Shown: in pieces, positions 2,145 to 35,436 of the stretch
Layout: each line of letters opens with the position of its first letter
How positions within the stretch are numbered: position 1 is the first letter of the stretch
Origin: Lepas anatifera
Lineage: Eukaryota; Arthropoda; Thecostraca; Lepadidae
Reading direction: 5' to 3'
Length of the DNA stretch: 64,000 nucleotides
NCBI GenBank assembly: GCA_034440635.1
Contig: JAOTON010001685.1
Coordinates: 1,437,001 to 1,501,000 of the forward strand
The notes under the pieces: generated by a model
Seen by the model: only the letters and a program-made list of their open reading frames with translations
The model's database searches: none
What the model was told of the DNA's origin: nothing
Made by a program: the position numbers and the translations under genes

Positions 2145-2167
2145 GATGCCCCCAGGGGCGCAAGTTT
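2145..2167 (+). repeat. Left TSD and left TIR of the outer giant hAT-like element
   Basis: Positions 2145-2152 read gatgcccc and are repeated exactly at 16258-16265. The element begins at 2153 with CAGGGGCGCAAGTTT. The reverse complement of its right end is CAGGGGCGCAACTTT, so 14 of 15 terminal bases match. An 8-bp duplication with CAGGG-type ends is the usual signature of the hAT superfamily. Confidence 0.92.
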
Positions 2168-2278
2168 CCATATATTTGGGGGGCTCGAGCCCCCCCAATG
2201 CTCGGAGAAGCCCCCCCAATGACCCGACGAGCCCCCCAATCCCAAGTTGCGGGCCCCTGCGGACAGAGCCGGGCCCCT

Positions 2279-2464
2279 GCCACGATTCCGGGCCCCAGTG
2301 GTCTACTTGGACTAGCTTTGGCTGAGGCCAGGCTCCCTCCCATGCTTGCGGGTGCCCTGTGGGCCACCCTTAACCTCGGTGTCAGCAACCGGCCCCTAAC
2401 GACATTTTTCAGGCCCACTTTGACTGCAGCCGGGTCCCTAATTCCGGCAGTCTCGGGTCTCCTG
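2279..2464 (+). repeat. Left boundary block of the minisatellite (outer copy)
   Basis: About 190 bp of non-tandem sequence between the left terminus and the minisatellite. It shares a run of landmarks in the same order with 11525-11727: a gccccNgtggtctac-like start, ggctccct..catgcttg, cccctaacga, tttcaggccca, ttttgactgca and gcagtctcggg. The array therefore lies between two diverged direct copies of one block. Confidence 0.7.
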
Positions 2465-4100
2465 TCATCCAACCGGGCCCTCTGTGATCCACCGGGCCCC
2501 CTGTGGACTGCAACCGGGCCCCCTGTAATCCACCCGGGCCCCCTGTGACTGCAGCCGGGCCCCCTGTGATCTATCCAGCCCCCTGTGACTGCAACCGGGC
2601 CCCTCTTTGATCCACCCGCACCCCTGTGACTGCAACCGGGCCCCTGTGATCCACCCGGGCCCCTGTGACTGCAACCGGGCCCCCTGTCATCCACCCGGGC
2701 TCCCTGTGACTGCAACCGGGCCATCTGTGATCCACCCGGCCCACCTGTGACTGCAACCGGGCCCCTGTGATACACCCGGGCCCCTGTGATTACAACCGGG
2801 CCCCCTATCATCCACCCGGACCCCTGTGACTGGGATCGGGCCATCTGTGATCAACCCGGGCCCCCTTTAATTACAATCGGGCCCCTATGATTCACCCGGG
2901 CCCCCCTGTGACTCCATCCGGGCCCCCTGTGACTGCAACCGGGCCATTTATGATCCACCCGGGCCTCCTGTGACTGAAACCGGGCCCCCTGTCATCCACC
3001 CGGGCCCCTTGTGACTGCAACTGGGCTATCTGTGATCCACCCGGGGCCCCTGTGACTGCAACCGGGCCCCCTATGATCCACCCAGGCCCCCTGTGACTGC
3101 AACCGGGCCCCATGTGATCCACCCGGGCCCCCTGTAATTACAACCGGACCCTATGATCCAACCAGGCCACCTGTGACTGCAACCGGGCCCCCTATGATTC
3201 ACTCAGGCCCCCCGTGACTGCGACCGGGCCCCCTAAGATCCACCCGGGCCCCCTGTGACTGCAAACGGATTCCCTGTGGTTCAACCGGGCCACCTGTGAC
3301 TGAAAACCGGGCCCCCTGTCATCCACCCGCAACTGGGCCCCCTGTGACTGCAACCGGGCCCCCTATGATTCACTCAGGCCCCCTGTGACTGCGACCGGGC
3401 CCCCTGTGATCCACCCGGGCCCCCTGTGACTGCAACCAGACCCCCCTGTGATTACAACCAGGCCAGTTAAGATCCACCCGGGCCATCTGTGATCCACTCG
3501 GGTCCCCTGTGACTGCAACCGGGCCCTCTGTGAGCAATCCGCCCCTATGACTGCAACCGGGCCCCCTGTAATCCACCCGGCTCCCTGTGACTGCAATCGG
3601 GCCCTCTGTGATACACTCGGGCCCCCTGCGACTGCAACCGGGCCATCTGTGATCCACTCGGGGCCCCTGTGACTGCAGCCATGCACTATGTGACTGCAAC
3701 CGGGCCCCCTGTGACTGCAACCGGGCCCCCTGTAATCCACCTGGGGCACCCTGTGATCCATCCGGGGCCCCATGTGATCTATCCTGGCCCCCCTGTGATC
3801 CAAACGGGCCCTCTTTGACTGCAACCGGGCCCCCTGAGATCCACCCGGGTCCCCTGTGAGTGCAAACGGATTCCCTGTGGTCCAACCGGGCCACCTGTGA
3901 CTGCAACCGGGCCCCTGGAATCCACCCGGCCCCCTGTTATCCACCCGGGCCCCTGTGACTGCAAGCGTGCCATCTATGATCCACCCGGGCCCCCTGTGAC
4001 TGAAACCGGGCCCCCTGTAATCCACTCGGGCCCCCTGTGACTGCAACCGGGCCCCATGTGATCGGCCCGGGCCCCCTGTAATTACAACCGGGCCCCTATG
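2465..4100 (+). repeat. GGGCCC minisatellite, outer copy (left part)
   Basis: Tandem 20- and 21-bp units share a GGGCCCCCTGTGA core. Two types alternate, one continuing with ctgcaaccg and one with tccacccg, giving a loose dimer of about 41 bp; a rarer type continues with ttacaaccg. The GGGCCC at each junction is palindromic. The array is cut at 4100 by the nested element and resumes for about 50 bp at 11424. Long frames on both strands here are translations of the repeat and are not genes. Confidence 0.92.
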
Positions 4101-4115
4101 CAGGGGCGCAAGTTT
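4093..4115 (+). repeat. Left TSD and left TIR of the nested element
   Basis: Positions 4093-4100 read cccctatg, inside the minisatellite of the outer element. The same eight bases follow the right end at 11416-11423. The nested element starts at 4101 with CAGGGGCGCAAGTTT, identical to the outer element's start. Confidence 0.92.
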
Positions 4116-4224
4116 CCATATATTTGGGGGGCTCGAGCCCCCAATGCTCGGAGAAGCCCCCCCAATGACCCGACGAGCCCCCCCAATCCCAAGTTGCGGG
4201 CCCCTGCGGACAGAGCCGGGCCCC

Positions 4225-4412
4225 TGCCACGATTCCGGGCCCCAGTGGTGTACTTGGGCTAGCTTTGGCTGAGGCCAGGCTCCCTGGCATGCTTGCGGGT
4301 GCCCTGTGGGCCACCTTTAACCCCAGTGTTCGCAACCGGGTCCCTAACGATATTTTTTCAGGCCCACTTTGACTGCAGCCGGGTCCCTAATTCCGGCAGT
4401 CTCGGGCCTCCT
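4225..4412 (+). repeat. Left boundary block of the minisatellite (nested copy)
   Basis: This is the equivalent of 2279-2464 in the nested copy and nearly identical to it by eye. It is related to the block at 6901-7089, so the nested copy's array is also bracketed by direct repeats. Confidence 0.7.
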
Positions 4413-6850
4413 GTCATCCAACCGGGCCCTCTGTGATCCACCCGGGCCCCCTGTGGACTGCAACCGGGCTCCCTGTAATCCACCCGGGCCCCCTGTAATC
4501 TCTCCGGCCCCCTGTGACTGCAACCGGGCCCCTCTTTGATCCATCCGCACCCCTGTGACTGCAACCGGGCCCCTGTGATCCAGCCGGGCCCCCTGTGATC
4601 CACCCGGGCCCCTGTGACTGCAACCGGGCCCCCTGTCATCCACCCGAGCTCCCTGTCACTACAACCGGGCCATCTGTGATCCACCCGGCCCACCTGTGAC
4701 TGCAACCGGGCCCCCTGTAATCCACCCGGGCTCCCTGTGATTAAAACCGGGCCCCCTATCATCCACCCGGACCCCTGTGATACACCCGGGCCCCCTGTGA
4801 TTACAACCGGGCCCCTATCATCCACCCGGGCCCCTGTGATACACCCGGGCCTCCTGTGACTAGGACAGAGCCAACTGTGATCCACCGGGGCCCCTGTGAC
4901 TGCAACCGGGCCCTCTGCGATCCACCCGGTCCCCTGCGACTGCAACCGGACCCTCTGTGATCCACCCGGGCCCCCTGTAATTATAACCGGGCCCCATATG
5001 ATCCACCCGGGCCCATGTGACTCCAGCCGGGCCCCCTGTGACTGCAAGCGTACCATCTATGATCCACCCGGGCCCCCTGTGACTGAAACCGGGTCCCCTG
5101 TAATCCACTCGGGCCCCCTGTGACTACAACCGGGCCCCATGTGATCCGCCCGGGCCCCCTGTAATTACAACCGGGCCCCCTATGATCCACCCGGGCCCCC
5201 TGTGATACACCCGGCCCCCTGTGACTGCAACCGGGCCATCTGTGATCCACCCGGGCCCCTGTGAGTGCAACCAGGCACTCTGTGACTGCAACCGGCCCCC
5301 TGTGACTGCAACCAGGCACTCTGTGACTGCAACCGGGCCCACTTTGATCCACCCTGGCCCCCTGTAATCCACCTGGGGCCCCCTGTGATCCACCCGGGGC
5401 CCCATGTGATCCATTCTGGGCCCCCTGTGATCCACACGGGCCCTCTTTGACTGCAACCGGGCCCCCTGAGATCCACCCGGGCCCCTGTGACTGCAACCGG
5501 GCCCCCTGTCATCCACCCGAGCTCCCTGTCACTACAACCGGGCCATCTGTGATCCACCCGGCCCACCTGTGACTGCAACCGGGCCCCCTGTAATCCACCC
5601 GGGCTCCCTGTGATTACAACCGGGCCCCCTATCATCCACCCGGACCCCTGTGATACACCCGGGCCCCCTGTGATTACAACCGGGCCCCATGTGATCCGCC
5701 CGGGCCCCCTGTAATTACAACCGGCCCCCTATGATCCACCCGGGCCCCCTGCGATACACCCGGGCCCCCTGTGACTGCAACCGGGCCATCTGTGATCCAC
5801 CCGGGCCCCTGTGAGTGCAACCAGGCACTCTGTGACTGCAACCGGGCCCCCCTGTGACTGCAACCAGGCACTCTGTGACTGCAACCGGGCCCACTTTGAT
5901 CCACCCTGGCCCCCTGTAATCCACCTGGGGCCCCCTGTGATCCACCCGGGGCCCCATGTGATCCATTCTGGGCCCCCTGTGATCCACACGGGCCCTCTTT
6001 GACTGCAACCGGGCCCCCTAAGATCCACCCGGGCCCCTGTGACTGCAAACGGATTCCCTGTGGTCCAACCGGGCCACCTGTGACTGAAACCGGGCCCCCT
6101 GTCATCCAACCGAGCCCCCTGTGACTGCAACTGGGCCATCTGTGATCCACCCGGGGCCCCTGTGACTGCAACCGGGCCCCCTATGATTCACTCAGGCCCC
6201 CTGTGACTGCGACCGGGCCCCCTGTGATTCACCCGGGCCCTCTGTGACTGCAACCGGACCCCCTGTGATTACAACCAGGTCAGTTAAGATCCACCCGGGC
6301 CATCTGTGATCCACCTGGGTCCCCTGTGACTGCAACCGGGCCATCTGTGATCCACTCGGGGCCCCTGTGACTGCAACCATGCACTATGTGACTGCAACCG
6401 GGCCCCCTATGACTGCAACCGGGCACTATGTGACTGCAACCGGGCCCCCTATGACTGCAACCGGGCCCTTTGTGATCCACCCGGGCCCACTATGCTCCAT
6501 CCGGGCCCCCTGAGACTGCAATCGGGCCCCCTTTAATCCACCTGGGGCCCCCTGTGATCCATCCTGGGCCCCATGTGATCCACACGGGCCCTCTTTGACT
6601 GCAACCGGGCCCCCTGAGATCCACCCAGGCCCCCTGTGACTGCAAACGGATTCCCTGTGGTCCAACCGGGCCACCTGTGACTGCAACCGGGTCCCTGGAA
6701 TCCACCCGGCCCCCCTGTTATCCACCCGAGCTCCTGTGACTGCAACCGAGCCCTCTGTGATCCACCCGAGCCCCTGTCACCGCAACCGGGCGCCTGTGAT
6801 CCACCCGGGCCCCCTGTGACTGCAACCGGGACCTGTGACTGCAACCGGGC
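4413..6850 (+). repeat. GGGCCC minisatellite, nested copy
   Basis: About 2.4 kb of the same alternating 20/21-bp units. It shows higher-order structure: long segments recur within the array. For example, the stretch around 5190-5490 is closely repeated at about 5720-6030, including the distinctive aaccaggcactctgtgactg variants. This pattern points to unequal exchange or replication slippage of multi-unit blocks, not single-unit growth. Confidence 0.92.
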
Positions 6851-6900
6851 TCCCTGTGGTCCAGGAGGCGCGGGTCCTCTAATGCCACGGACGGGCCCTT

Positions 6901-7089
6901 GCCATGAGTGCGGGGCCCCGTGGTCTATCTGGGCTTGCTGTGGCTGCGGTCGGGCTCCCTGGCATGCTTGCTTGGGTGCGGTACCTTTTAGGGCCCCCAT
7001 AATCGCTGTGTCCGCAAACGGGCCCCTAACGATATTCTCAGGCCCATTTTGACTGCATCCGGGGCCCTATTTCTGGAAGTCTCGGGACC
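6901..7089 (+). repeat. Right boundary block of the minisatellite (nested copy)
   Basis: A diverged direct copy of the left block (4225-4412), with the same landmarks in the same order: gtggtctatctgggcttg, ggctccctggcatgcttg, cccctaacgatatt, tcaggcccattttgactgca and ctcggga. Confidence 0.65.
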
Positions 7090-7400
7090 TTTTTGGCTCC
7101 TCTGTGACTGCAACCGGGCTCCTTGTATTCTGCCTTGGCCCCTTTTAGTCTGCCCGGGGCCTTTGTAGGTGGTCTGGGCTTTTTGTAGTGTGCCTGGGTC
7201 CTGTGTGGTCCGCCCGGGCCCCTGTGGTCTGCCCGCGCCCCTTGTGAGCGGTCTGGGCTCCTTTTAGTCTGCCCGGGCCCTCTGTGGTCTGCTCGGGCCC
7301 CCTGTGGTCTACCCAGCCCCCTGCGGTCTGCCCGGCCCCTTGCAATTTGCCCGGGCTCCTATGGTTTGTCCGTGTCCCTGTGGTTTGCAAGGAACCACAG

Positions 7401-7572
7401 CACTAGCGGATCCAGGGGGGGGTAAAGGTAAAATTGGGGGATTTGATGCCCTCCCCAAATGCCCCGATTTAACAATTTTTACGGATTTTCTTCAAACAAA
7501 AACCATATGTTTTTTTCACGATTTGGGGCCCCGTTGCCCCCCTCCCCCACCATCGGCCTGAATCCGCCCCTG
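7401..7572 (+). mobile_element. Small hAT-like MITE fixed inside the giant element (nested copy)
   Basis: About 172 bp with ends CACTAGCGGATCCAGG and, in reverse complement, CAGGGGCGGATTCAGG (12 of 16 match). Such CGGATCCAGG-type ends are common in hAT MITEs. The body is G-rich near the ends with a T-rich centre. Flanking octamers (aaccacag and attccact) do not match well, so the duplication has decayed or the ends are slightly misplaced. It sits at the same place in all three giant copies, so it was acquired before they dispersed. Confidence 0.65.
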
Positions 7573-7729
7573 ATTCCACTCCTCCCACTTCGCTGTATCC
7601 GGGAACCCGTGCTATAATTTCAGGCTCCCTCTGGGCTACCCAGACCTCCTCTGACTCTAGCCGGGCTCCTTGCCTTGCTTACGACCCCTGTAGTTCACCA
7701 CCCCCCACCGTGCGCAGCCGGGCCCGTTT

Positions 7730-8260
7730 CGATAAGTACTGGTTTAATAAATTGATATATTTGTTATTTTTGCATCTCTCCGCCGGCACTACTTTTCTTC
7801 ATTGATATATTTCTAGGCATTTTGTCAGAAATGTGCATGAAGTTTTCCATTTTTGTTTGTTCTAGTGCAATTTTAAATACAGACAAATTTAAATCTCTTA
7901 AATTTGTCTGTCAAAAAGTGTATCAAATCTTGTCGTCAAATCTGGGTTAAATAATGAGCGTCCGCCGGCGAATGGTAGCCTCCTAATTTCCCGGGCTTGT
8001 CAGCGCAGCGCGAAGGAAGCTAAGGCATGCTCCTGGCTCTCTTGTCGCATTCGCCGAGGCGAATGAATTGCACAAAGTTTGCCTTGAACAGTAAAATTGG
8101 CATGCTTATGATTCAATCGGCTTGTGTCTACTCTGGAAAAGTTTCGTTAGGCTCTGATTTGGATTTTACGTTTGGGCTTTTCGTGTCAATCCAAATCGTG
8201 CTCCGATGCGCGGTGCTGAATGGCAAGTGAAGTGATTGTTTGCTATTAGCTGCTGTCAGG
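7730..8260 (+). repeat. Conserved AT-richer segment with a short palindrome (nested copy)
   Basis: This segment is conserved in all three giant copies (about 12370-13160 and 31210-31750 reversed). It contains an inverted repeat at 7879-7911, acagacaaatttaa with its complement around a short centre. It also includes a 67-codon frame (8027-8230) that is repeated at 12924-13127 and on the minus strand at 31246-31449. The frame lacks any recognisable domain, and its conservation is explained by copy recency, so I do not call it a gene. Confidence 0.5.
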
Positions 8261-8349
8261 GCTAATTCCCTAATGAGTGATGATCCCCTGTCCTGCTCCC
8301 CTGATGGCTAAATACCAAGACTTGGAGAATTTTGTGTCCCCTATGGCCG

Positions 8350-10340
8350 ATCTAGAATTTGGGTAAGGGGAGGGGAGGGGCAAAGCCTCAGGGGACAGGG
8401 CGGCACTTAGCCACCCGAAGGGCGCACTTTTCACCCAAAGGGCGACAAATCGTCGCATCCTGGGGGAGGGGAGGGTTTGGGGGCGGCATTTCGTCCTCAG
8501 AGGCTCTTGGGTTTAAGGGGTGGCTGCCCACTCGCCCCCTCCCCTGGTGGCCACCCCATTCACCCCGCCCCCTGGTGGCTGCAGCCGGGTCCCTACTCCC
8601 AGTAGTTAATACCCTGTGGATGCAGACGGGCCTGCCATGGATGCGGTTCGTGTAACTGCAACCAGCCTCTGCCATGCTTGCCATGCGGGCCCCTGTGGTA
8701 TCCCGGGCCCCTATTGGTCTGATCGGGCCCCCTGTGGCCTGTCCGGTCCCCTGTGGTCTGCCCGGGCCCCAGTGTGCAAAGTATGGCATTTTCGACGAGA
8801 TCTCGTCGGTGCGAGTGCCCTTGGAGACAGGAGCGAGTGGTGCGAATTTTATCAGCCTGGTGCGAATTTGCAAAACTGGTGCGAGGAAGTTGACACTGAA
8901 AACTAAAAAAATAATGACTGAATAGTTAGGAAGACACAGGAGGGGGCCTTATAAAAAGTCTTTAACTAACTAATAAGAGAGGTAGTATTGCATCGTGTGG
9001 GTAGGAATGTGTGCGTTTTTCTCCCTAGTAGCTGGCAGATTGGTGAGAATTTTTAGGCTGGTGGTGCGATAATTTTGGATGGCTGGTGCGACTCGTCTGG
9101 CCTGCTGCCATACTTTGCAGACTGGCTGGGTCCCATTTGGTCTGCACGGACCCCTTGTCTGCTAGTGCCCATTTTGTTCTGATCGAGCCCCTTGTGGTCT
9201 GCCCGGGCCTCCTGTGGTTTTCCCGGAACCCTTTTGGCCTGTCCGGGCCTCTGTGTGGCCTCTGTGGACCCCCTTTTGTCCGTTCGGGGCCCCTTTTGTC
9301 TGCGCGGGCCCTCTGTGGTTTGCCCGGGCCCCTCCCAGTCTGCAAAGTATGGCACTTTTGGCGAGATCTCGTGGTGCGGACATCTCGTGGTGCGGTGGTT
9401 CGAACTTTGGAGCAAACAAGTGCCCACTTTTGCTGTATGGTGCGAGGGAGCTCAAATCAAACACCCACAGAGATCTGAGAAGGGAGAAACTGGTAAAAAC
9501 ATCGAAATTTCCGGGTCAGTGAAATTTCTCACCAATGCTTGGTGTGAATTTTAGGCTGCTGGTGGTGCGAAAAATCTACAAGGCTGGTGCGGACTCGTCA
9601 GGTCTGCTGCCATACTTTCCAGACTGGGGCCCCTCTGTGGTTAGCCCGGCCCCTGTGTTCTGCTCGGGTCCCTGTGGTCTGCCCGGGTCCTTTCATCTGT
9701 CCAGGCCCCGTGTGGTCTGCCCGGGCCCGCTGTCCAGCCAGCAATTTCGACCGGGCCCAGAGTGGGCTGGGTCGGGCTCTGCCCGAGCCCTAAGACTCAT
9801 AGCTAAGCCACATAGACTCGGGCTGAGCCCGACATTAGGTCGGGGGATGACAACTTGCCCGAGCGGTAGAGCCCGGTCTTGCTTGACCATGGGCTCTGCC
9901 CAGACGGAGCGGAGCCGGACCTGGGCTGAGCCCATGTACGCGGGCTCTGCCCAGTCAAAGCCCAGCATATATCGGGCAGAGTCCAGCCAAATTGCTGGCT
10001 GTGTGTGGTCTGCTCGGGCCCCTTTTGGGTTTACCAGCGTCCTATGGCTTTCTGGGTTCCTGTGGTCTGCCCGGCTCCTTTGGTGTGCTCAGGCCCTCTG
10101 TGGTCTGTCCGGGCCCCTTGTGGTCTAAGAATATCGTGCAGAAACTGGAGCTGTTGTGTTAGCCGCGAATTTGCAGGAGTTCCTTATTTTTTAGCAGTTT
10201 CGTGCCCCAGCTGGTGTAGCCCTGCTCCGTGTTGCCGAAACTGGCCCCCTGCCATGCTTGCGGGCCCTGTGGTTTTCCCAGGGCAACGTGCGGCCGGTCC
10301 CATGCAACATTCGGGGAAAATGGATGGGGCGTGAAAATGT
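8350..10340 (+). repeat. Degenerate GGGCCC-type repeats in the transposon body (nested copy)
   Basis: Imperfect short units built on gtggtctgcccgggcccc recur throughout, with clusters at about 8690-8775, 9120-9340, 9620-9760 and 10010-10130, separated by unique-looking pieces. The units resemble the minisatellite core, which suggests the whole body grew from one ancestral short repeat. A near-identical equivalent lies at about 13260-15150 and, reversed, at 29110-31150. Confidence 0.6.
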
Positions 10341-11015
10341 TAGGCCCCCATTCCTTTCGTACTGATCCTATATGAGGATTGTAAAGGGAAATAGGCAGTA
10401 CCACCTATTCATAGTACCCCTTGACCGGTACCCAGTGTTGTACAATGCCATGAACTGGCAAGGTGAATGGATCAGAAAAAGGTGTCTTGATCATGTAACC
10501 TAAATATCAGTAGGTTCGATTTCCCCGCTGATAAAGGAATTTCGCACTTCGATCTCGGCCTTCCATTTGTATCAAATTATTCGCGATAATGCGATTTTGT
10601 TCCAGGTGTGAATGTTAAAATGGTTGGACAGTATAAACATAAGTCGGGTGCACAAAAGCGTAAAACAAAGAACATTCAATACCGAGGGGCTGCTCTGGCA
10701 AAACTACCCAAATTTTGTACATTTTTCAGGTAAACTATGAATCTAGAATCGTCTTCCTAATTTTGCAAACTGTTATAAAATGACCCCGATCATATTTGCA
10801 TTTAATCTCCTGCAACGTACGCGTCCACTTAAAGTAGTTCATATCACTACTATTTTTGGTACTTTGCAAGCTACGTTCATTCACCGACCGCAAAAATTAA
10901 AACCCCAATTTAAAACTAACTCGGAAAAGTGCAATGTGTATAGTTTCCAGCAAAACGGTAAAGTAAGGTTGTAATTCCAATCCTTCTTTTCCTGATCATT
11001 GCCTTCCTCGGCCAG

Positions 11016-11131
11016 GCCATCAGCCGGATCCCGTTTGCTAAAAGAACCTCCAGCATCCATCCCTCCTGCGTCGTCCGGGGCTGATCCCGTTTTACCTCCG
11101 GAGGAGAGCATCCACGTGGACGACAAAGACG
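11016..11131 (+). pseudogene. Exon-like segment with splice signals (nested copy)
   Basis: An open 116-bp segment preceded by a pyrimidine-rich tract ending in ggccag and followed by a strong donor, GACG|GTAAGT. In the open frame it would encode a Pro/Ser-rich piece ending in an acidic tail (key residues SSGADP, PPEES, VDD). The same segment occurs in both other copies with mostly third-position or conservative changes, but one of them has a 1-bp insertion. It could be the last visible part of a transposase gene, a captured host exon, or a splice trap. I recognise no domain. Only about 280 bp separate the donor from the element end, so any following exon would have to lie outside the element. 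Confidence 0.4.
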
Positions 11132-11392
11132 GTAAGTATACACCTACTTGTCCAATATCCTTACATAGTTTGGCAGCTCGTTCAAAAGATTGGGTCTTCT
11201 GACTACTTTTTGGGCTAAATAGTGCAAATCAGGAACAGTGACGAATAGCGCGCTAAAAATTGTTATTTAACCTTTGCAGTCAGTTTCGACAACAAACGGT
11301 CGAAAATATGTTTTTTTCGGTCACATTTTCATTAAAAAAATACGGGCCCCCATCATGTACGGGCCCCCTTTCGAGCCGGGTTCCCCCCAATC

Positions 11393-11423
11393 GAAAACAT
11401 AAAGTTGCGCCCCTGCCCCTATG
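11393..11423 (+). repeat. Right TIR and right TSD of the nested element
   Basis: The right end reads aaagttgcgcccctg, finishing at 11415, and is followed by cccctatg at 11416-11423. The outer element's minisatellite resumes directly afterwards. Confidence 0.92.
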
Positions 11424-11524
11424 ATCCACCCGGCCCCCTGTTATCCACCCGGGCCCCTGTGACTGCAACCGGGCTCCCTGTGGTCCAGGAGGCGCGGGTT
11501 CTCTAATGCCACGGACGGGCCCTT

Positions 11525-11727
11525 GCCATGAGTGCGGGGCCCCGTGGTCTATCTGGGCTTGCTGTGGCTGCGGTCGGGCTCCCTGGCATGCTTGCCTGGA
11601 ATGCTCGCTTAGGTGCGGTGCCCTTTAGGGCCACCCATAATCGCTGTGTCCGTAAACGGGCCCCTAACGATATTCTCAGGCCCATTTTGACTGCATCCGG
11701 TGCCCTATTTCTGGAAGTCTCGGGACC
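11525..11727 (+). repeat. Right boundary block of the minisatellite (outer copy)
   Basis: This is the outer copy's equivalent of 6901-7089. Together with 2279-2464 it brackets the outer array, which the nested element has split. Confidence 0.65.
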
Positions 11728-12038
11728 TTTTTGGCTCCTCTGTGACTGCAACCGGGCTCCTTGTATTCTGCCTTGGCCCCTTTTAGTCTGCCCGGGGCCT
11801 TTGTAGGTGGTCTGGTTTTTTTGTAGTGTGCCTGGGTCCTGTGTGGTCCGCCCGGGCCCCTGTAGTCTGCCCGCGCCCCTTGTGGGCGGTCTGGGCTCCT
11901 TTTAGTCTGCCCGGGCCTTCTGTGGTCTGCTCGGACCCCCTGTGGTCTACCCAGCCCCCTGCGGTCTGCCCGGCCCCTTGCAATTTGCCCGGGCTCCTAT
12001 GGTTTGTCCGTGTCCCTGTGGTCTGCAAGGAACCACAG

Positions 12039-12211
12039 CACTAGCAGATCCAGGGGGAGGGGGGTAAAGGTAAAATCGGTGGATTTGATGCCCTCCCCAA
12101 ATCCCCCGATTTTACCGATTTTTACGGATTTTCTTCAAACAAAAACCTTATGTTTTTCACGATTTGGGGCCGTTTCCCCCTCCCCCCACCATCGGCCTGA
12201 ATCCGCCCCTG
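12039..12211 (+). mobile_element. Internal hAT-like MITE (outer copy)
   Basis: The same MITE as at 7401-7572, at the same place within the giant element. Its left end is CACTAGCAGATCCAGG and its right end is cctgaatccgcccctg. Confidence 0.65.
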
Positions 12212-12506
12212 ATTCCACTCCTCCCACTTCGCTGTATTCGGGAACCCGTGCTATATTTTCAGGCTCCCTCTGGGCTACCCAGGCCTCCTCTGGCTCTAGC
12301 CGGGCTCCTTGCCTTGCTTACGACCCCCCGTAGTTAACCACCCCCGCCCCCCACCGTGCGCAGCCGGGCCCCTTCCGATAAGTACTGGTTTAATGAATTG
12401 ACATGTTTGTTATTTTGGCATCTCTCCGCCGGCACTACTTTTCTTCATTGATAAATGTGCATAAAGTTTTCCATCTTTGTTTGTTCTGGTGGAATTTTAA
12501 ATACAG

Positions 12507-12803
12507 ACAAATTTAAGTCTAATGTTGGATTCAACCGTTGATAAGTTTTTAAGTGCTGCGGCGAGGAGCATGATGATGAGTTGTTAAGATGTTCCCTGGC
12601 CTCTCCCCTCGAATCCGGAAATGTAAAAAACACTGAAGATTATGTATTCGGGCACAGCCCTTCATCAGAATCGTGGAGTAAATATTTACTCCACGATTCT
12701 GATGAAGGGCTGTGCCCGAATATATAATCTTCAGTTCGATATATATATATAATTTCCGGATTCGAGGGGAGAGGCCAGGGAACATCTTAACAAATTTAAG
12801 TCT
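12507..12803 (+). mobile_element. Fold-back insertion with 14-bp TSD and hammerhead-like motif
   Basis: A 269-bp insert (12521-12789) is present only in the outer giant copy. The other two copies preserve the empty site. It is flanked by acaaatttaagtct at 12507-12520 and 12790-12803. Most of it is a near-perfect hairpin: arms 12583-12683 and 12684-12791 meet at gtaaat|atttac. The left 62 bp are unpaired. The plus strand at 12699-12722 reads CTGATGA, then a GGGC/GCCC stem, then GAAta, close to a hammerhead ribozyme core. Penelope-like retroelements carry hammerhead motifs in inverted terminal repeats and make duplications of this length, so a short Penelope-like remnant is my best guess. No coding remains. 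The insertion point lies at the centre of a pre-existing short palindrome. Confidence 0.6.
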
Positions 12804-15800
12804 CTTAAATTTGTCTGTCAAAAAGTGTATCATATCTTGTCGTCAACTCTGGGTCAAATAATGTGCGTCCGCCGGCGAATGATAGCCTCTTAATTTCCCG
12901 GGCTTGTCAGCGTAGCGCGAAGGATGCTCCTGGCTATCTTGTCGCATTCGCCGAGGCGAATGATTTGCACAAAGTTTGCCTTGAACAGTAAAATTAGCAT
13001 GCTTATGATTCAATCGGCTTGTGTCTACTCTGGAAAAGTTTCGTTAGCCTCTGATTTGGATTTTAAGTTTGGGCTTTTCGTGTCAATCCAAATCGTGCTC
13101 CGATGCGCAGTGTTGAATGGCAAGTGAAGTGATTGTTTGCTATTAGCTTCTGTCGGGCTAAATCACTAATGAGTGATGATCCCCTGTCCGGCTCCCCTGA
13201 TGGCTAAATACCAAGACTTGGAGAATCTTTTGTCCCCTATGGCCGCCAGTGACGTATCTAGAATTTGGGTAAGGGAAGGGGGAAGGGCAAAGCCTCAGGG
13301 GACAGGGTGACACTTAGCCACCCGAAAGGCGCACTTTTCACCCAAAGGGCGACCAATCGTCGCATCCCGGGGGAGGGGAGGGTTTGGGGGCGGTATTTTG
13401 TCCTCAGAGGCTCTTGGGTTTAAGGGGTGGCTGCCCCATTCGCCCCCCCCTGGTGGCCACCCCATTCGCCCCGCCCCCTGGTGGCTGCAGCCGGGTCCCT
13501 ACTCCCAGTAGTTAATAACCTGTGGATGCAGACGGGCCTGCCATGGATGCGGTTCGTGTAACTGCAACCAGCCTCTGCCATGCTTGCCATGCGGGCCCCT
13601 GTGGTATCCTGGGCCCCTGTGGTCTGCCCGGGCCCCAGTGTGCGAAGTATGGCATTTTCGACGAGATCTCGTCGGTGCGAGTGCCCTTGGAGACAGGAGC
13701 GAGTGGTGCGAATTTTATCAGCCTGGTGTGAATTTGCAAAACTGGTGCGAGGAAATTGACACTGAAAAAAATGACTGAATAGTCAGGAAGACACAGGAGG
13801 GGGCCTTATAAAAAGTCCTTAACTAACTAATAAGAGAGGTAGTATTGCATCGTGTGGGTAGGAATGTGTGCGTTTTTCTCCCTGGTATATGGCAGATTGG
13901 TGCGAATTTTTTTAGGCTGGTGGTGCGACTCGTCTGGCTTGCTGCCATACTTTGCAGACTGGCCGGGTCCCATTTGGTCTGCACGAACTCCTTGTCTGCT
14001 AGTGCCCATTTTGTTCTGATCGAGCCCCTTGGGGTCTGCCCGGGCCTCCTGTGGTTTTCCCGGAACCCTTTTGGTCTGTCCGGGCCTCTGTGTGGCCTCT
14101 GCGGACCCCCTTTTGTCCGTTCGGGCCCCTTTTGTCTGCGCGGGCCCTCTGTGGTTTGCCCGGGCCCTTCCCAGTCTGCAAAGTATGGCACTTTTGGTGA
14201 GATCTCGTGGTGCGGACACCCTTCAGGTGGTTCGAACTTTGGAGCAAACAAATGCCCACTTTTGCTGTATGGTGCGAGGGAGCTTAAATCAAACACCCAC
14301 AGAGGTCTGAGAAGGGAGAAACTGGTAAAAACATCGAAATTTCCGGGTCAGTGAAATTTCTCACCAATGCTTGGTGTGAATTTTAGGCTGCTGGTGGTGC
14401 GAAAAATCTACAAGGCTGGTGCGGTCTCGTCGGGTCTGCTGCCATACTTTCCAGACTGGGGCCCCTCTGTGGTTAGCCCGGCCCCTGTGTTCTGGTCGGG
14501 TCCCTGTGGTCTGCCCGGCTCCTTTCATCTGTCCAGGCCCCGTGTGGTGTGCTCGGGCCCGCTGCCCAGCCAGCAATTCCGACCGGGCCCAGAGCGGGCT
14601 GGGCCGGGCTCTGCCCGAGCCCTAAGACTCATAGCTGAGCCACATAGACTCGGGCTGAGCCCGACATTAGGTTGGGGGATGACAACTTGCCCGAGCGGTA
14701 GAGCCCGGTCTTGCTTGACCATGGGCTCTGCCCAGGCGCAGCGGAGCCGGACCTGGGCTGAGCCCATGTACGCGGGCTCTGCCCAGTCAAAGCCCAGCAT
14801 ATATCGGGCAGAGTCCAGCAAATTGCTGGCTGTGTGTGGTCTGCTCGGGCCCCTTGTGGGCATACCGGCGTCCTATGGTTTTCTGGGTTCCTGTGGTCTG
14901 CCCGGCTCCTTTGGTGTACTCAGGCCCTCTGTGGTCTGTCTGGGCCCCTTGTGGTCTAAGAATATCGTGCAGAAACTGAAGCTGTTGTGTTAGTCGCGTA
15001 TTTGCAGGAGTTCCTTATTTGTTAGCAGTTTCGTGCCCCAGATGGTGTATCCGTGCTCCCTGTTGCCAAAACCGGCCCCCTGCCATGCTTGCGGGCCCCC
15101 TGTGGTTTTCCCGGGCAACGTGCGGCCGGTCCCATGCCTCCTGGAACATTCGGGGAAAAACGATGGGGCGTGAGAAATGTTAGGCCCCCCATTCCTTTTG
15201 TACTGATCCTATATGAGGATTGTAAAGGGAAATAGGCAGTACCACCTATTCATAGTACCCCTTGACCGGTACCCAGTGTTGTAAAATGTCATGAACTGGC
15301 AAGGTGAATTGATCAGAAAAAGGTGTCTTGATCATGTAAAATAAATATCAGTAGGTTCGATTTCCCCGCTGATAAAGGAATTTCGCACTTCGATCTCTAC
15401 CTTTCATTTGTATCAAATTATTCGCGATAATGCGATTTCGTTCCAGGTGTGAATGTTAAAATGGTTGGACAGTATAAACATAAGTCGGGTGCACAAAAAC
15501 GTAAAACAAAGAACATCCAATACCGATGGGCTGCTCTGGCAAAACTACCCAAACTTTGTTCTTTTTTCAGGTAAACTATGAATCTAGAATCGTCTTGCTT
15601 ATTTTGCAAACTGTTACAAAATGACCCCGATCATATTTGCATTTAATCTCTCGCAACGTACGCGTCCACTTAAAGTAGTTCATATCACTACTATTTTTGG
15701 TACTTTGCAAGCTACGTTCATTTATCGACCGCAAAAATTAAAACCCTAATTTAAAACTAACTCGGAAAAGTGCAATGTGTATAGTTTCCAGCAAAACGGT

Positions 15801-15856
15801 AAAGTAAGGTTGTAATTACAATCCTTCTTTTCCTGATCATTGCCTTCCTCGGCCCG

Positions 15857-15972
15857 GCCACCAGCTGGATCGCGTTTGCTAAAAGACCCTCCAGCATCCA
15901 TCCCTCCTGCGTCGTCCGGGGCTGATCCCGTTGTACCTCCCGAGGAGAGCATCCGCGTGGACGACGAAGACG
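15857..15972 (+). pseudogene. Exon-like segment with splice donor (outer copy)
   Basis: A 116-bp equivalent of 11016-11131, in frame over the whole segment, with donor GACG|GTAAGT retained. The acceptor context here is altered (ggcccg instead of ggccag), although ccaccag lies just downstream. The acidic tail reads VDDEDG. Confidence 0.38.
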
Positions 15973-16234
15973 GTAAGTAGACACCTACTTGTCCAATATC
16001 CTTACATAGTTTGGCAGCTCGTTCAAAAGATTGGCTCTTCTGTCTACTTTTTAGGCTAAATAGTGCAAATCAGGAACAGTGACGAATAGTGCGCTAAAAA
16101 TTATTATTTAACCTTTGCAGTCAGTTTTCGACAACAAACGGTCGAAAATACGATTTTTCGGTCACATTTTCATTAAAAAATACGGGCCCCCCATCATGTA
16201 CGGGCCCCCTTTCGAGCTGGGTGCCCCCCCAATC

Positions 16235-16265
16235 GAAAACATAAAGTTGCGCCCCTGGATGCCCC
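16235..16265 (+). repeat. Right TIR and right TSD of the outer element
   Basis: The right end aaagttgcgcccctg finishes at 16257 and is followed by gatgcccc at 16258-16265, an exact match to 2145-2152. Confidence 0.92.
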
Positions 16266-28026: not shown

Positions 28027-28049
28027 ATACTACTCAGGGGCGCAACTTT
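28027..28049 (-). repeat. TSD and right TIR of the third giant element
   Basis: atactact at 28027-28034 is repeated exactly at 35562-35569. The element boundary at 28035 reads CAGGGGCGCAACTTT, which is the right end of the family seen on the opposite strand. Confidence 0.93.
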
Positions 28050-28337
28050 ATGTTTTCGATTGGGGGGCACCCGGCTCGAAAGGGGGCCCGTACATGATGG
28101 GGGCCCGTACATGATGGGGGGCCCGTATTTTGTTAATGAAAATGTGACCGAAAAAAACGTATTTTCGACCGTTTGTTGTCGAAAACTGACTGCAAAGGTT
28201 AAATAACAATTTTTAGCGCGCTATTCTTCACTGTTCCTGATTTGCACTATTTAGCCCAAAAAGTAGTCAGAAGACCCAATCTTTTGAAAGAGCTGCCAAA
28301 CTATGTAAGGATATCGGACAAGTAGGTGCCTACTTAC

Positions 28338-28454
28338 CGTCTTCGTCGTCCACGCGGGATGCTCTCCTCCGGAGGTACAACGGGATCAGCCCCGGACGAC
28401 GCAGGAGGGATGGATGCTGGAGGGTCTTTTAGCAAACGGGATCCGGCTGGTGGG
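28338..28454 (-). pseudogene. Exon-like segment with splice signals (third copy)
   Basis: The minus-strand equivalent of 11016-11131, with pyrimidine-rich acceptor ending ggccag and donor GTAAGT (28332-28337). It is 117 bp because one extra C in agcatcccgcg shifts the frame before the acidic tail. This copy is therefore broken if the segment was ever coding. Confidence 0.4.
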
Positions 28455-31400
28455 CTGGCCGAGGAAGATAATGATCAGGAAAAGAAGGATTGGAATTACA
28501 ACCTTACTTTACCGTTTTGCTGGAAACTATACACATTGCACTTTTCCGAGTTAGTTTTAAATTGGGGTTTTAATTTTTTGCGGTCCATAAATGAACGTAG
28601 CTTGCAAAGTACCAAAAATAGTAGTGATATGAACTACTTTAAGTGGACGCGTACGTTGCTAGATATTAAATGCAAATATTATCGGGGTCATTTTATAACA
28701 GTTTGCAAAATTAGCAAGACGATTCTAGATTCATAGGTTACCTGAAAAATGAACAAAGTTTGGGTAGTTTTGCCAGAGCAGCCCCTCGGTATTGAATGTT
28801 CTTTGTTTTACGCTTTTGTGCACCCGACTTATGTTTATACTGTCCAACCATTTTAACATTCACACCTGGAACGAAATCGCATTATCGCAAATAATTTGAT
28901 ACAAATGGAAGGTAGAGATCGAAGTGCGAAATTCCTTTATCAGCGGGGATACTGATATTTATGTTACATGATCAAGACACCTTTTTCTGATCCATTCACC
29001 TTGCCAGTTCATGACATTTTACAACACTGGGTACCGGTCAAGGGGTACTATGAATAGGTGGTACTGCCTATTTCCCTTTACAATCCTCATATAGGATCAG
29101 TACAAAAGGAATGGGGGGCCTAAAATTTCTCACGCCCCATCGTTTTTCCCCGAATGTTCCAGGAGGCATGGGACCGGCCGCACCTTGCCCGGGAAAACCA
29201 CAGGGGGCCCGCAAGCATGGCAGGGGGCCGGTTTTGGCAACAGGGAGCACGGATACACTAATCTGGGGCACGAAACTGCTAACAAATAAGGAACTCCTGC
29301 AAATACGCGACTAACACAACAGCTTCAGTTTCTGCACGATATTCTTAGACCACAAGGGGCCCAGACAGACTACAGAGGGCCTGAGCACACCAAAGGGGCC
29401 GGGCAGACCACAGGAACCCAGAAACCATAGGACGCCGGTAAGCCCAAAAGGGGCCCGAGCAGGCCACACACAGCCAGCAATTTGGCTGGACTCTGCCCGA
29501 TATATGCTGGGCTTTGACTGGGCAGAGCCAGCGTACATGGGCTCAGACCAGGTTCGGCTCCGCTGCGCCTGGGCAGAACCCATGGTCAAGCAAGACCGGG
29601 CTCTACCGCTCGGGCAAGTTGTCATCCACCGACCTAATGTCGGGCTCAGCCCGAGTCTATGTGGCTCAGCTATGAGTCTTAGGGCTCGGGCAGAGCCCGG
29701 CCCAGCCCGCTCTGGGCCCGGTCGGAATTGCTGGCTGGGCAGCGGGCCCGGGCAGACCACACGGGGCCTGGACAGATGAAAGGACCCGGGCAGACCACAG
29801 GGACCCGAGCAGAACACAGGGGCCGGGCTAGCCACAGAGGGGCCCCAGTCTGGAAAGTATGGCAGCAGACCCGACGAGTCCGCACCAGCCTTGTAGATTT
29901 TTCGCACCACCAGCAGCCTAAAATTCACACCAAGCATTGGTGAGAAATTTCACTGACCTGGAAATTTCGATGTTTTTACCAGTTTCTCCCTTCTCAGACC
30001 TCTGTGGCTGTTTGATTTGAGCTCCCTCGCACCATACAGCAAAAGTGGGCATTTGTTTGCTCCAAAGTTCGAACCACCTGAAGGGTGTCCGCACCACGAG
30101 ATCTCGCCAAAAGTGCCATACTTTGCAGACTGGGAGGGGCCCGGGCAAACCACAGAGGGCCCGCGCAGACAAAAGGGGCCCCGAACGGACAAAAGGGGGT
30201 CCGCAGAGGCCACACAGAGGCCCGGACAGACCAAAAGGGTTCCGGGAAAACTACAGGAGGCCCGGGCAGACCACAAGGGGCTCGATCAGAACAAAATGGG
30301 CACTAGCAGACAAGGGGTCCGTGCAGACCAAATGGGACCCAGCCAGTCTGCAAAGTATGGCAGCAGGCCAGACGAGTCGCACCAGCCATCCAAAATTATC
30401 GCACCACCAGCCTAAAAAAATCGCACCAATCTGCCATATACCAGGGAGAAAAACGCACACATTGCTACCCACAAGACGCAATACTACCTCTCTTATTAGT
30501 TAGTTAAGGACTTTTTATAAGGCCCCTCCTGTGTCTTCCTAACTATTCAGTCATTTTTTTTATTTTTCAGTGTCAACTTCCTCGCACCAGTTTTGCAAAT
30601 TCGCACCAGGCTGATAAAATTCGCACCACTCGCTCCTGTCTCCAAGGGCACTCGCACCGACGAGATCTCGTCGAAAATGCCATACTTTGCACACTGGGGC
30701 CCGGGCAGACCACAGGGGCCCGGACAGGCCACAGGGGGCCCGATCAGACCAATAGGGGCCCGGGATACCACAGGGGCCCGCATGGCAAGCATGGCAGAGG
30801 CTGGTTGCAGTTACACGAACCGCATCCATGGCAGGCCCGTCTGCATCCACAGGGTATTAACTACTGGGAGTAGGGACCCGGCTGCAGCCACCAGGGGGCG
30901 GGGCGAATGGGGTGGCCACCAGGGGAGGGGGCGAGTGGGGCAGCCACCCCTTAAACCCAAGAGCCTCTAGAGGACGAAATGCCGCCCCCAAACCCTCCCC
31001 TCCCCCAGGATGCGACGATTTGTCGCCCTTTGGGTGAAAAGTGCGCCCTTCGGGTGGCTAAGTGCCGCCCTGTCCCCTGAGGCTTGCCCCTCCCCTCCCC
31101 TTACCCAAATTCTAGATATGTCACTGGCGGCCATAGGGGACACAAAATTCTCCAAGTCTTGGTATTTAGCCATCAGGGGAGCCGGACAGGGGATCATCAC
31201 TCATTGAGGATTTAGCCCGACAGGAGCTAATAGCAAACAATCACTTCACTTGCCATTCAACACTGCGCATCGGAGCACGATTTGGATTGACACGAAAAGC
31301 CCAAACGTAAAATCCAAATCAGAGCCTAACGAAACTTTTCCAGAGTAGACACAAGCCGATTGAATCATACGCATGCCAATTTTACTGTTCAAGGCAAACT

Positions 31401-31906
31401 TTGTGCAAATCATTCGCCTCGGTGAATGCGACAAGAGAGCCAGGAGCATGCCTTAGATTCCTTTGCGCTGCGCTGACAATCCCGGGAAATTAAGATGCTA
31501 CCATTCGCCGGTGGACGCACATTATTTGACCCGGATTTGACGACAAGATATGATACACTTTTTGACAGACAAATTTAAGAGACTTAAATTTGTCTGTATT
31601 TAAAATTCCACTTGAACAAACAAAAATGGAAAACTTCATGCAAATTTCTGACAAAAATGCCTAGAAATATATCAATGAAGAAAAGTAGTGCCGGCGGAGA
31701 GATGCCAAAATAACAAACATGTCAATGTATTAAACCAGTACTTATCGGAAGGGGCCCGGCTGCGCACGGTGGGGGGGGGGTGAACTACGGGGGGTCGTAA
31801 GCAAGGCAAGGAGCCCGGCTAGAGACAGAGGAGGCCTGGGTAGTCCAGAGGGAGCCTGAAATTATAGCACGGGTTCCCGGATACAGCGAAGTGGGAGGAG
31901 TGGAAT

Positions 31907-32076
31907 CAGGGGCGGATTCAGGCCGACGGTGGGGGGAGGGGGGCAACGGGGCCCCAAATCGTGAAAAACATATAGTTTTTGTTTGAAGAAAATCCGTAAA
32001 AATCGGTAAAATCGGGGGGATTTGGGGAGGGCATCAAATCCCCCGATTTTACCTTTACCCCCTGGATCCGCTAGTG
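31907..32076 (-). mobile_element. Internal hAT-like MITE (third copy)
   Basis: The same 170-bp MITE as at 7401-7572 and 12039-12211. Ends here are caggggcggattcagg and cctggatccgctagtg. Confidence 0.65.
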
Positions 32077-32388
32077 CTGTGGTTCCTTGCAGACCACAGG
32101 GACACGGACAAACCATAGGGACCCGGGCAAATTGCAAGGGGCTGGGCAGACTGCAGGGGCTGGGTAGACCACAGGGGGGCCCGAGCAGACCACAGAGGGC
32201 CCAGGGAGACTAAAAGGAGCCCAGACCGCCCATAAGGGGCGCGGGCAGACCACAGGGACCCGGGCGGACCACACAGGACCCAGGAACACTACAAAAAGCC
32301 CAGACCACCTACAAAGGCCCCGGGCAGACTAAAAGGGGCCAAGGCAGAATACAAGGAGCCCGGTTGCAGTCACAGAGGAACCAAAAAG

Positions 32389-32590
32389 GTCCCGAGACTG
32401 TCAGAAATAGGGCCCCGGATGCAGTCAAAATGGGCCTGAGAATATCGTTAGGGGCCCGTTTGCGGACACAGCGATTATGGGTGGCCCTAAAGGGGACTGC
32501 ACCCAAGCGAGCATTCCAGGCAAGCATGCCAGGGAGCCCGACCGCAGCCACAGCAAGCCCAGATAGACCACGGGGCCCTGCACTCATGGC
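32389..32590 (-). repeat. Right boundary block of the minisatellite (third copy)
   Basis: The minus-strand equivalent of 6901-7089, with the landmarks taggggcccgtttgcg, gggagcccgaccgcag and agaccacggggcc. Confidence 0.65.
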
Positions 32591-32639
32591 AAGGGCCCGT
32601 CCGTGGCATTAGAGGACCCGCGCCTCCTGGACCACAGGG

Positions 32640-35252
32640 AGCCCGGTTGCAGTCACAGGTCCCGGTTGCAATCACAGGGGGCCCGGGTGGATCACAGGCG
32701 CCCGGTTGCGGTGACAGGGGCTCGGGCGGATCACAGAGGGCCCGGTTGCAGTCACAGGGGCCCGGGTGGATAACAGGGGGCCGGGTTAATTCCAGGGGCC
32801 CGGTTGCAGTCACAGGTGGCCCGGTTGGACCACAGGGAATCCGTTTGCAGTCACAGGGGGCTCGGGTGGATCTCAGGGGGCCCAGTTGCAGTCAAAGAGG
32901 GCCCGTGTGGATCACAGGGGGCCCAGGATGGATCACATGGGGCCCGGGTGCATCACAGGGGGCCCCAGGTGGATTACAGGGGGCCCGATTGCAGTCACAG
33001 GGGGCCCGGGTGGATCAAAGGGGGCCCGGTTGCAGTCACAGGTGCCCCGGGTAGATCATAGTGGGCCCGGGTGGATGAAAAAGGGCCCGGTTGCAGTCAC
33101 AGGGGGCCCGGTTGCGTACATAGTGCATGGTTGCAGTCACAGGGGCCCGGTGGATCCAGATAGCCCGGTTGATCCAGGGGCCGGTGTTAGAGGGCCCGGT
33201 TGCAGTCACAGGGGGCCGGGTGGATTACAGGGGGCCCGGTTGCAGTCACAGGGGGCCGGATGGCTCACAGAGGGCCCGGTTGCAGTCACATTGGACCCGG
33301 GTGGATCACAGATGGCCCGGGTGGATCTTAACTGGCCTGGCTGTAATCACAGGGGGTCCAGTTGCAGTCACAGGGGCCCGGGGGATCACAGGGGGCCCAG
33401 TCGCAGTCACAGGGGGCCTGAGTGAATCATAGGGGGCCCGGTTGCAGTCACAGGGGCCTCGGTGGATCACAGATGGCCCAGTTGCAGTCACAGGGGGCCC
33501 GGGTGGATGACAGGGGGCCCGGTTTCAGTCACAGGTGGCCCGGTTGGACCACAGGGAATCCGTTTGCAGTCACAGGGGGCCCGGGTGGATCTCAGGGGGC
33601 CCGGTTGCAGTCAAAGAGGGCCCGAGTGGATTACAGGGGGCCAGGATGGATCACATGGGGCCCCGGGTAGATCACAGGGGGCCCCAGGTGGATTACAGGG
33701 GGCCCGATTGCAGTCACAGGGGGCCCGGGTGGATCAAAGGGGGCCCGGTTGCAGTCACAGAGTGCCTGGTTGCAGTCACAGGGGCCCCAGGTGGATCACA
33801 GATGGCCCGGTTGCAGTCAAAGGGGGCCCGGGTGTATCACAGGGGGCCCGGTTGCAGTCACAGGGGGCCCGGTTGGATCATAGGGGACCCGGTTGTAATT
33901 ACAGGGGGCCCGAGTGGACCACATGGGGCCCGGTTGCAGTCACAGGGGGCCTGGGTGGATCATAGGTGGCCTGGTTGCAGTCACTGGGGCCCCGGGTGGA
34001 TCACAGATAACCCAGTTGCAGTCACAGGGGGCCCGGGTGGATGACAGGGGGCCCGGTTTCAGTCACAGGAGGCCCGGGTGGATCATAGATGGCCCGGTTG
34101 CAGTCACAGGGGGCCCGGATGGAGTCACAGGGGGCCCGGGTGAATCATAGGGGGCCCCATTTGTAATTACAGGGGGCCCGGGTTGATCACAGATGGCCCG
34201 ATCCCAGTCACAGGGTGCCCGGGTGGATGATAGGGGGCCCGGTTGTAATCACAGGGAGCCCGGGTGGATTACAGGGGGCTCGGTTGCAGTCACAGGTGGG
34301 CCGGGTGGATCAGAGAGGGCCCGGTTGCAGTCACAGGGGCCCAGGTTGGATCACAGATGGCCCGGTTGAAGTCACAGGAGGCCCAGTTGGAGTCACAGGG
34401 GGCCCGAGTGGATTACAGGGACCCCGGTTTCAGTCACAGGGGGCCCGGGTGGATCATAGATGGCACGCTTGCAGTCACAGGGGACCCGGTTGGAGTCACA
34501 TGGGGCCCGGGTGGATGATATGGGGCCCGGTTATAATTACAGGGGGCCCGGGTGGATCACAGAGGGCCCGGTTGCAGTCACAGGGGACCGGGTGGATCGC
34601 AGAGGGCCCGGTTGCAGTCACAGGGGCCCTGGTGGATCACAGTTGGCTCTGTCCCAGTCACAGGGGGCCCGGGTGTATCACAGGGGCCCGGGTGGATGAT
34701 AGGGGGCCAGGTTGTAATCACAGGGGGCCCGGGTGTATCACAGGGGTCCGGGTGGATGATAGGGGGCCCGGTTGTAATCACAGGGAGCCCGGGTGGATCA
34801 CAGAGGACCCGGTTGCAGTCACAGGGGGCCGGGTGGATCGCAGAGGGCCTGGTTGCAGTCACAGGGACCCCGGTGGATCACAATTGGCCCGGTCCCAGTC
34901 CCAGGGGGGCCCGGGTGTATCACAGGGGCACGGGTGGATGATAGGGAGCCCGGTTGTAATCACAGGGAGCTCGGGTGGATTACAGGGAGCCCGGTTGCAG
35001 TCACAGGTGGGCCGGGTGGATCACAGATGGCCCGGTTGTAGTCACAGGGAGCCCGGGTGGATGACAGGGGGCCCGGTTGCAGTCACAGGGGCCCGGGTGG
35101 ATCACAGGGGGCCCGTTTGCAGTCACAGGGGTGCGGGTGGATCAAAGAGGGGCCCGATTGCAGTCACAGGGGGCCGGATAGATCACAGGGGGCCCGGCTG
35201 CAGTCACAGGGGGCCCGGGTGGATTACAGGGGGCCCGGTTGGATGACAGGAG
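32640..35252 (-). repeat. GGGCCC minisatellite, third copy
   Basis: About 2.6 kb of the same 20/21-bp units seen from the G-rich strand (GGGGGCCCGG then ttgcagtcaca or gtggatcaca). Array length differs among copies: about 1.7 kb in the outer, 2.4 kb in the nested and 2.6 kb here. Confidence 0.92.
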
Positions 35253-35436
35253 GCCCGAGACTGCCGGAATTAGGGACCCGGCTGCAGTCAAAATGGGCCT
35301 GAAAAATATCGTTAGGGTCCCGGTTGCGGACACCGAGGTTAAGAATGGCCCCACAGGGCACCCGCAAGCATGCCAGGGAGCCTGGTCTCAGCCAAAGCTA
35401 GCCCAAGTAGACCACTGGGGCCCGGAATCGTGGCAG
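35253..35436 (-). repeat. Left boundary block of the minisatellite (third copy)
   Basis: The minus-strand equivalent of 2279-2464 and 4225-4412, between the array and the left terminus at 35561. Confidence 0.7.

What the first reader, a model, noticed from the sequence alone, without database searches (positions are those of the whole stretch)
2145..16265. A giant hAT-like transposon nested inside another copy of itself, both with perfect 8-bp duplications
The outer element (2153-16257) is bounded by gatgcccc and the inner (4101-11415) by cccctatg, each duplicated exactly. Both have the same CAGGGGCGCAA termini. This gives a clear order of events and shows that the family transposes as units of about 7 kb, well above the usual size of non-autonomous hAT elements. 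Insertion into the minisatellite of a relative could be chance, since the array is a large target, or a preference for its own repeat.
Basis: partly seen in the sequence, partly recalled or inferred. Interest (0 to 1): 0.88.

Follow-up and report, generated by a model that had tools for sequence, protein, structure and literature searches.

The report
Large transposon nested in its relative
Three 7-kb copies of one jumping DNA element, each filled with a short-repeat array and showing no recognisable enzyme gene, sit in this stretch, and one of them landed inside another; this is a clear but mostly ordinary example of transposon nesting.

Summary
The outer element (2153-16257) is flanked by GATGCCCC and the inner one (4101-11415) by CCCCTATG; both end in CAGGGGCGCAA. 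All six exact CAGGGGCGCAA sites in the window are ends of these three elements. Without the insertion the outer element is 6782 bp, so units of about 7 kb did transpose repeatedly. Copies differ by 3-4% outside the repeat array; outer and inner carry similar private substitutions (97 and 92 of 4421 gap-free columns). Each holds an array (about 1.75-2.7 kb) of roughly 20-bp GGGCCCC units. Near the right end is an exon-like stretch, open in all three. From memory I read it as the 5' end of a deleted hAT transposase; no search confirmed that. Best reading: a non-autonomous, probably hAT, family mobilised in trans. Nested Ds, long mobile Ds and tandem arrays in DNA transposons are in print. Array preference cannot be judged from one insertion; the host genome could not be searched. 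New member of a known kind.

The parts
2145..2152 (.). outer TSD, left copy GATGCCCC
2153..4100 (+). outer element, left part: TIR CAGGGGCGCAA, left end, most of its GGGCCCC array
4093..4100 (.). inner TSD, left copy CCCCTATG (lies in the outer array)
4101..11415 (+). inner element, 7315 bp, same orientation as outer
4361..6863 (+). inner array of roughly 20-bp GGGCCCC units (start approximate)
9335..9627 (.). small 293-bp element with CCAGTCTG ends inside the inner element, flanked by perfect GGCCCCTC duplications; counterparts in the outer copy (left flank GGCCCTTC, one mismatch) and the third copy
10620..10730 (+). exon-like ORF of 37 codons, inner copy; its last codon and stop overlap a possible splice donor (GTAAAC at 10730); proposed transposase 5' remnant
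11016..11131 (+). second exon-like stretch, inner copy, preceded by AG and followed by GTAAGTA; a splice from the first stretch keeps the frame open. The AG is changed in the outer copy; the third copy's reading frame shifts near the end of this stretch
11416..11423 (.). inner TSD, right copy CCCCTATG
11424..16257 (+). outer element, right part
12521..12789 (.). insertion in the outer copy only (283 bp counted with one repeat copy), with long inverted repeats, flanked by the 14-bp direct repeat ACAAATTTAAGTCT
15461..15571 (+). exon-like ORF, outer copy
16258..16265 (.). outer TSD, right copy GATGCCCC
28027..28034 (.). third-copy TSD, ATACTACT
28035..35561 (-). third full-length copy, 7527 bp, not in the finding
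28741..28851 (-). exon-like ORF, third copy
32628..35301 (-). array of the third copy (outer end approximate)
35562..35569 (.). third-copy TSD, ATACTACT

Best explanation
Three copies of one non-autonomous cut-and-paste DNA transposon family, most likely of the hAT superfamily. Shown: common 11-bp TIRs, 8-bp target duplications, common internal structure, one copy inserted into another in the same orientation. Inferred: a transposase supplied in trans cut progenitor copies at CAGGGGCGCAA and joined them to staggered 8-bp sites. Inferred too: the family descends from an autonomous element whose transposase gene was deleted, leaving its first exons near the right end; a GGGCCCC minisatellite starting close to the left end expanded, and small elements were picked up, before the copies dispersed. 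The outer copy inserted first and the inner later; the third is an independent insertion.
For: Exact TSDs for 3 of 3 elements. Six of six exact CAGGGGCGCAA sites are ends of these elements. Copies align along their length and are 96-97% identical right of the array. A CCAGTCTG element is at the corresponding place in 3 of 3 copies, so they moved as units from one progenitor. The pre-insertion site matches related arrays across the join. The exon-like ORF is open in 3 of 3 copies, and in the inner copy a splice from it to the second exon-like stretch keeps the frame. Published hAT traits: 8-bp TSD, short TIRs, and the CAG(G/A)GG-type TIR of Mar (PMC3517528, passages).
Against: No Pfam hit in the exon-like peptide and no transposase hit in six read-through frames of the inner copy's non-array part, only two weak unrelated hits at E 0.26 and 0.31. 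No homologue in two protein searches. 0 of 3 TSDs fit the Buster consensus nnnTAnnn. Some P-superfamily elements have 8-bp TSDs, so the superfamily rests on the TIR and on a remembered peptide likeness. The proposed first exon has an in-frame stop right at the proposed donor, so without splicing it is only a 37-codon ORF.
Confidence: 0.83

Rival explanations
1. Same non-autonomous transposon anatomy, but mobilised by another superfamily with 8-bp duplications (P; from memory also Merlin or Zisupton-type elements).
For: 8-bp TSDs are not unique to hAT: three Galileo copies (P superfamily) have 8-bp TSDs, and its longest copy is 9021 bp with internal tandem repeats and no transposase segment (PMC4168063, passages).
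Against: The CAGGGG terminus resembles that of the hAT MITE Mar; the exon-like peptide recalls hAT transposase N-termini (recall only).
Confidence: 0.12
2. The inner element went into the outer array by preference, for example because the transposase or the chromatin favours GGGCCCC repeats.
For: The inner element lies in the outer array about 64 bp from its end (coordinates); a small CCAGTCTG element also sits in array-like sequence with TSD GGCCCCTC.
Against: One event only. The outer and third arrays are about 4.4 of the 56.7 kb left when the inner element is set aside (arithmetic), so chance is adequate. The outer and third copies inserted outside arrays of this family.
Confidence: 0.12
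3. The nested arrangement is an assembly join or a duplication, not an insertion.
For: Arrays of this kind are hard to assemble; no reads were available.
Against: Exact TIR boundaries with an exact 8-bp duplication, and a pre-insertion site that matches related arrays across the join. The third copy shows the same kind of unit with its own duplication in different flanks.
Confidence: 0.03

Closest known systems
Maize Ds elements (Ds-l3, with one Ds-l4 nested in Ds-l3-15), hAT superfamily; PMC3260210, abstract start and passages seen
   Same: Non-autonomous, 11-bp TIRs, retain transposase exon pieces (Ds-l3, average 4 kb), one Ds-type element nested in another, movement of long elements reported.
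   Different: No tandem array is mentioned in the passages seen; Ds-l3 keeps parts of exons 2 and 3, whereas here first exons are proposed; units here are about 7 kb. That paper calls nesting rarer for Ds types and found no chromosome-breaking double Ds in B73.
Herves, hAT of Anopheles gambiae; PMC3143072, abstract and passages seen
   Same: 11-bp TIRs, unequal ends, imperfect tandem repeats in an unusually long left end.
   Different: Encodes its transposase and is active; three 100-bp repeats rather than roughly 85-130 units of about 20 bp.
Galileo, longest copy, P superfamily, Drosophila willistoni; PMC4168063, abstract and passages seen
   Same: 9 kb, no transposase segment, internal tandem repeats and another inserted element, identical TSDs.
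   Different: The repeats lie in long TIRs and are about 140 bp; TSD mostly 7 bp; another superfamily.
Mar, hAT MITE family of Drosophila; PMC3517528, passages seen
   Same: 11-bp TIR beginning CAG(G/A)GG, 8-bp TSD, non-autonomous.
   Different: 610 bp, AT-rich, TSD consensus nnnTAnnn.

Membership tests
hAT superfamily | 8-bp target-site duplication | tested here: met
   3 of 3 copies exact
hAT superfamily | short TIR (5-27 bp) | tested here: met
   11-bp identical TIRs CAGGGGCGCAA in 3 of 3 copies; range from PMC3517528
hAT superfamily | transposase with hAT domains, encoded by the element or supplied in trans | tested here: inconclusive
   no hAT domain in the inner copy's non-array part or in the exon-like peptide, so these copies are not shown to encode one; whether a hAT transposase elsewhere in the genome moves them could not be tested (genome search did not complete)
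hAT superfamily | sequence kinship to a known hAT element | tested here: inconclusive
   two protein searches gave no homologue; how many eukaryote proteins that database holds is not known to me
hAT superfamily | overall length under 4 kb (stated in PMC3517528, not a strict definition) | tested here: not met
   6782, 7315 and 7527 bp; statement, longer Ds elements
Buster family of hAT | TSD consensus nnnTAnnn | tested here: not met
   0 of 3 TSDs (GATGCCCC, CCCCTATG, ATACTACT); consensus; only three sites
MITE | short (hundreds of bp), non-coding | tested here: not met
   6782-7527 bp
P superfamily | P-type transposase | tested here: inconclusive
   no transposase of any kind found

The most novel reading that the evidence does not exclude
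The GGGCCCC array is an amplified set of transposase-binding subterminal sites derived from the element's own end. The first array-like unit (2244-2259, AAGTTGCGGGCCCCTG) resembles the right terminus (AAGTTGCGCCCCTG), and all matches to the unit core run on one strand. Such an array would gather or titrate transposase and could draw insertions into relatives, which would explain both the large size and the nesting. Against it: in Hermes, which has short subterminal binding repeats, the authors judge binding of extra transposases inside the ends to be unlikely to support transposition (section heading in PMC10368747, passages), and no binding was tested here.
Probability: 0.08. Interest if true: 0.6.

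Novelty: new member of a known kind. Interest (0 to 1): 0.33.

Why it matters
It gives a clean relative chronology for a large non-autonomous family and shows that 7-kb units with a large minisatellite can still move as whole units. If the array proved to be made of transposase-binding sites, it would offer a testable case of a transposon amplifying its own binding sites.

Tried and rejected
Whole-genome census of termini: could not be done.

Copies elsewhere: exact left-end patterns of 27 and 22 bases gave 0 matches in viral contigs and 0 in prokaryote genome contigs; this says little about a eukaryote's transposon. With the three elements masked, the inner element had no BLAST match in the rest of the window at E 1e-3.

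Transposase search: negative; four candidates shared words but none scored E 10 or better. One search translated a wrong frame and was not used. A text search for a piece of the exon-like peptide found 0 papers; a search needing 4 of 5 terms among hAT, transposase, DUF4371, MYM-type and TTF-type zinc finger found 0 papers. The other paper searches gave listings, from which I opened passages of PMC9659126, a review on tandem repeats from transposons (not used further), and of the papers named above. One paper on hAT target sites was not held.

Dating outer against inner by private substitutions: 97 and 92 (p = 0.77) do not resolve the order; the nesting does. The third copy has fewer (61; three-way p = 0.010), which may mean a younger insertion. 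4912 alignment columns were cut to 4421 without gaps; in 5 of these all three copies differ.

The general scan for 8-bp repeats next to inverted termini gave 14 pairs, among them cross-pairings between copies and matches within arrays (35, 10, 2 and 2 pairs for repeats of 6, 7, 9 and 10 bp). It is therefore not used alone as proof.

Rfam: no match at gathering scores.

I ran for that check and mended: the ORF's stop overlaps the proposed donor; the second small element is in the outer copy too; 6 of 7 CCCCTATG sites of the outer copy are in its array; match values for the empty site are given per copy.

Full report
What is there. The finding's two elements are exactly as described. The outer one spans 2153-16257 between two copies of GATGCCCC, the inner one 4101-11415 between two copies of CCCCTATG. 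Both begin with CAGGGGCGCAA and end with its reverse complement. The six exact occurrences of CAGGGGCGCAA in 64 kb are all ends of these three elements.

The junction. Taking out the inner element and one CCCCTATG gives a 120-bp site that matches array sequence straight across the join, at up to 91.7% in the inner copy and up to 87% in the third. Because the array repeats itself, an 8-bp match there is less striking than in unique DNA: the chance is 0.0077 for two random positions of the outer array, and 6 of the 7 CCCCTATG sites of the outer copy lie in its array. The exact TIRs and the other two duplications leave little doubt.

Anatomy. Each copy has a left end of about 260 bp, an array of roughly 20-bp GGGCCCC-containing units (about 1.75, 2.5 and 2.7 kb in outer, inner and third; the start is set by eye), and a right part of about 4.6 kb (4.8 kb in the outer, with its insertion) with more degenerate units, small inserted elements and a unique right end. 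All 58, 71 and 71 matches to the core (T/C)CGGGCC(C/T) in outer, inner and third lie on one strand, none on the other. Identity between copies over aligned columns is about 96% in the left end, 91-94% in the array and 96-97% in the right part; the array alignments also hold 403 to 984 gapped columns, so the arrays changed length faster than the rest.

Shared history. A CCAGTCTG-ended element of 289-293 bp is at the corresponding place in 3 of 3 copies. Its GGCCCCTC duplications are perfect in the inner and third copies and have one mismatch in the outer. It was therefore in the progenitor, and the copies moved as whole units. A second such element is also in all three: 357 and 355 bp in inner and third and 13635-13962 in the outer, where one base of the end differs; its flanks in inner and third are not a perfect duplication (CCCGGGCC and CTGGGTCC). 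Private substitutions over 4421 gap-free columns (of 4912) are 97 outer, 92 inner, 61 third. Outer and inner do not differ (p = 0.77); the three-way test gives p = 0.010. Nesting, not divergence, gives the order.

Coding remnant. At the right end a 37-codon ORF, MVGQYKHKSGAQKRK..., is open in all three copies. Its last codon and stop overlap a possible splice donor (GTAAAC; GTAACC in the third copy). A second exon-like stretch lies between an AG and GTAAGTA, and in the inner copy a splice between the two keeps the frame open. In the outer copy that AG is changed, and the third copy's frame shifts near the end of the second stretch. From memory this looks like the N-terminus of hAT transposases of the ZMYM1-like kind. 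No tool confirmed it: Pfam gave nothing, six read-through frames of the inner copy's non-array part gave only two weak unrelated hits, and two protein searches found no homologue.

Interpretation. The best reading is a non-autonomous cut-and-paste family, probably hAT, mobilised in trans. The host is a eukaryote by inference (a reverse transcriptase at 17597-18418, RVT_1 E 1.8e-22, which I take for a non-LTR element; intron-like signals), but I did not identify it.

Against the literature seen. One Ds-l4 nested in a Ds-l3 is reported, with the remark that such nesting is rarer for Ds types than for LTR elements; [quoted passage not shown] Herves has tandem repeats in a long left end (PMC3143072, passages). 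A 9-kb Galileo copy has tandem repeats and no transposase segment (PMC4168063, passages). So the size, the nesting and the array each have precedents; I make no claim that their combination is absent from print.

Array preference. One insertion cannot decide it. The outer and third arrays make up about 4.4 of the 56.7 kb left when the inner element is set aside (arithmetic on the coordinates), so chance is adequate.

Novel reading. The first array-like unit (2244-2259) resembles the right terminus of the element, and the array runs in one direction. It could therefore be an amplified set of transposase-binding sites. Nothing here tests binding, and a section heading of the Hermes paper speaks against a role for extra transposases bound inside the ends (PMC10368747, passages).

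Noticed in passing
28035-35561 (minus): Third full-length copy of the family with perfect ATACTACT duplications.
   Followed up: yes
12521-12789: Insertion with long inverted repeats, only in the outer copy, flanked by the 14-bp direct repeat ACAAATTTAAGTCT; longer than a hAT duplication, so perhaps another kind of element.
   Followed up: partly
8769-9125 and 9335-9627: Two related small elements with CCAGT(C/G)TGCAAAGTATGGCA ends; the second has perfect 8-bp duplications GGCCCCTC.
   Followed up: partly
7408-7573: Possible small hAT-type element with degenerate CAGGGGCGGAT ends (by eye); no clear duplication seen by eye, no inverted repeat reported.
   Followed up: partly
17597-19127: Reverse transcriptase in the first of two overlapping open frames (17597-18418, RVT_1); the second frame had no Pfam hit.
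   Followed up: partly
27756-27900: Degenerate GCCCCCTGAAA-type repeats just before the third copy, perhaps the end of another element (by eye).
   Followed up: no
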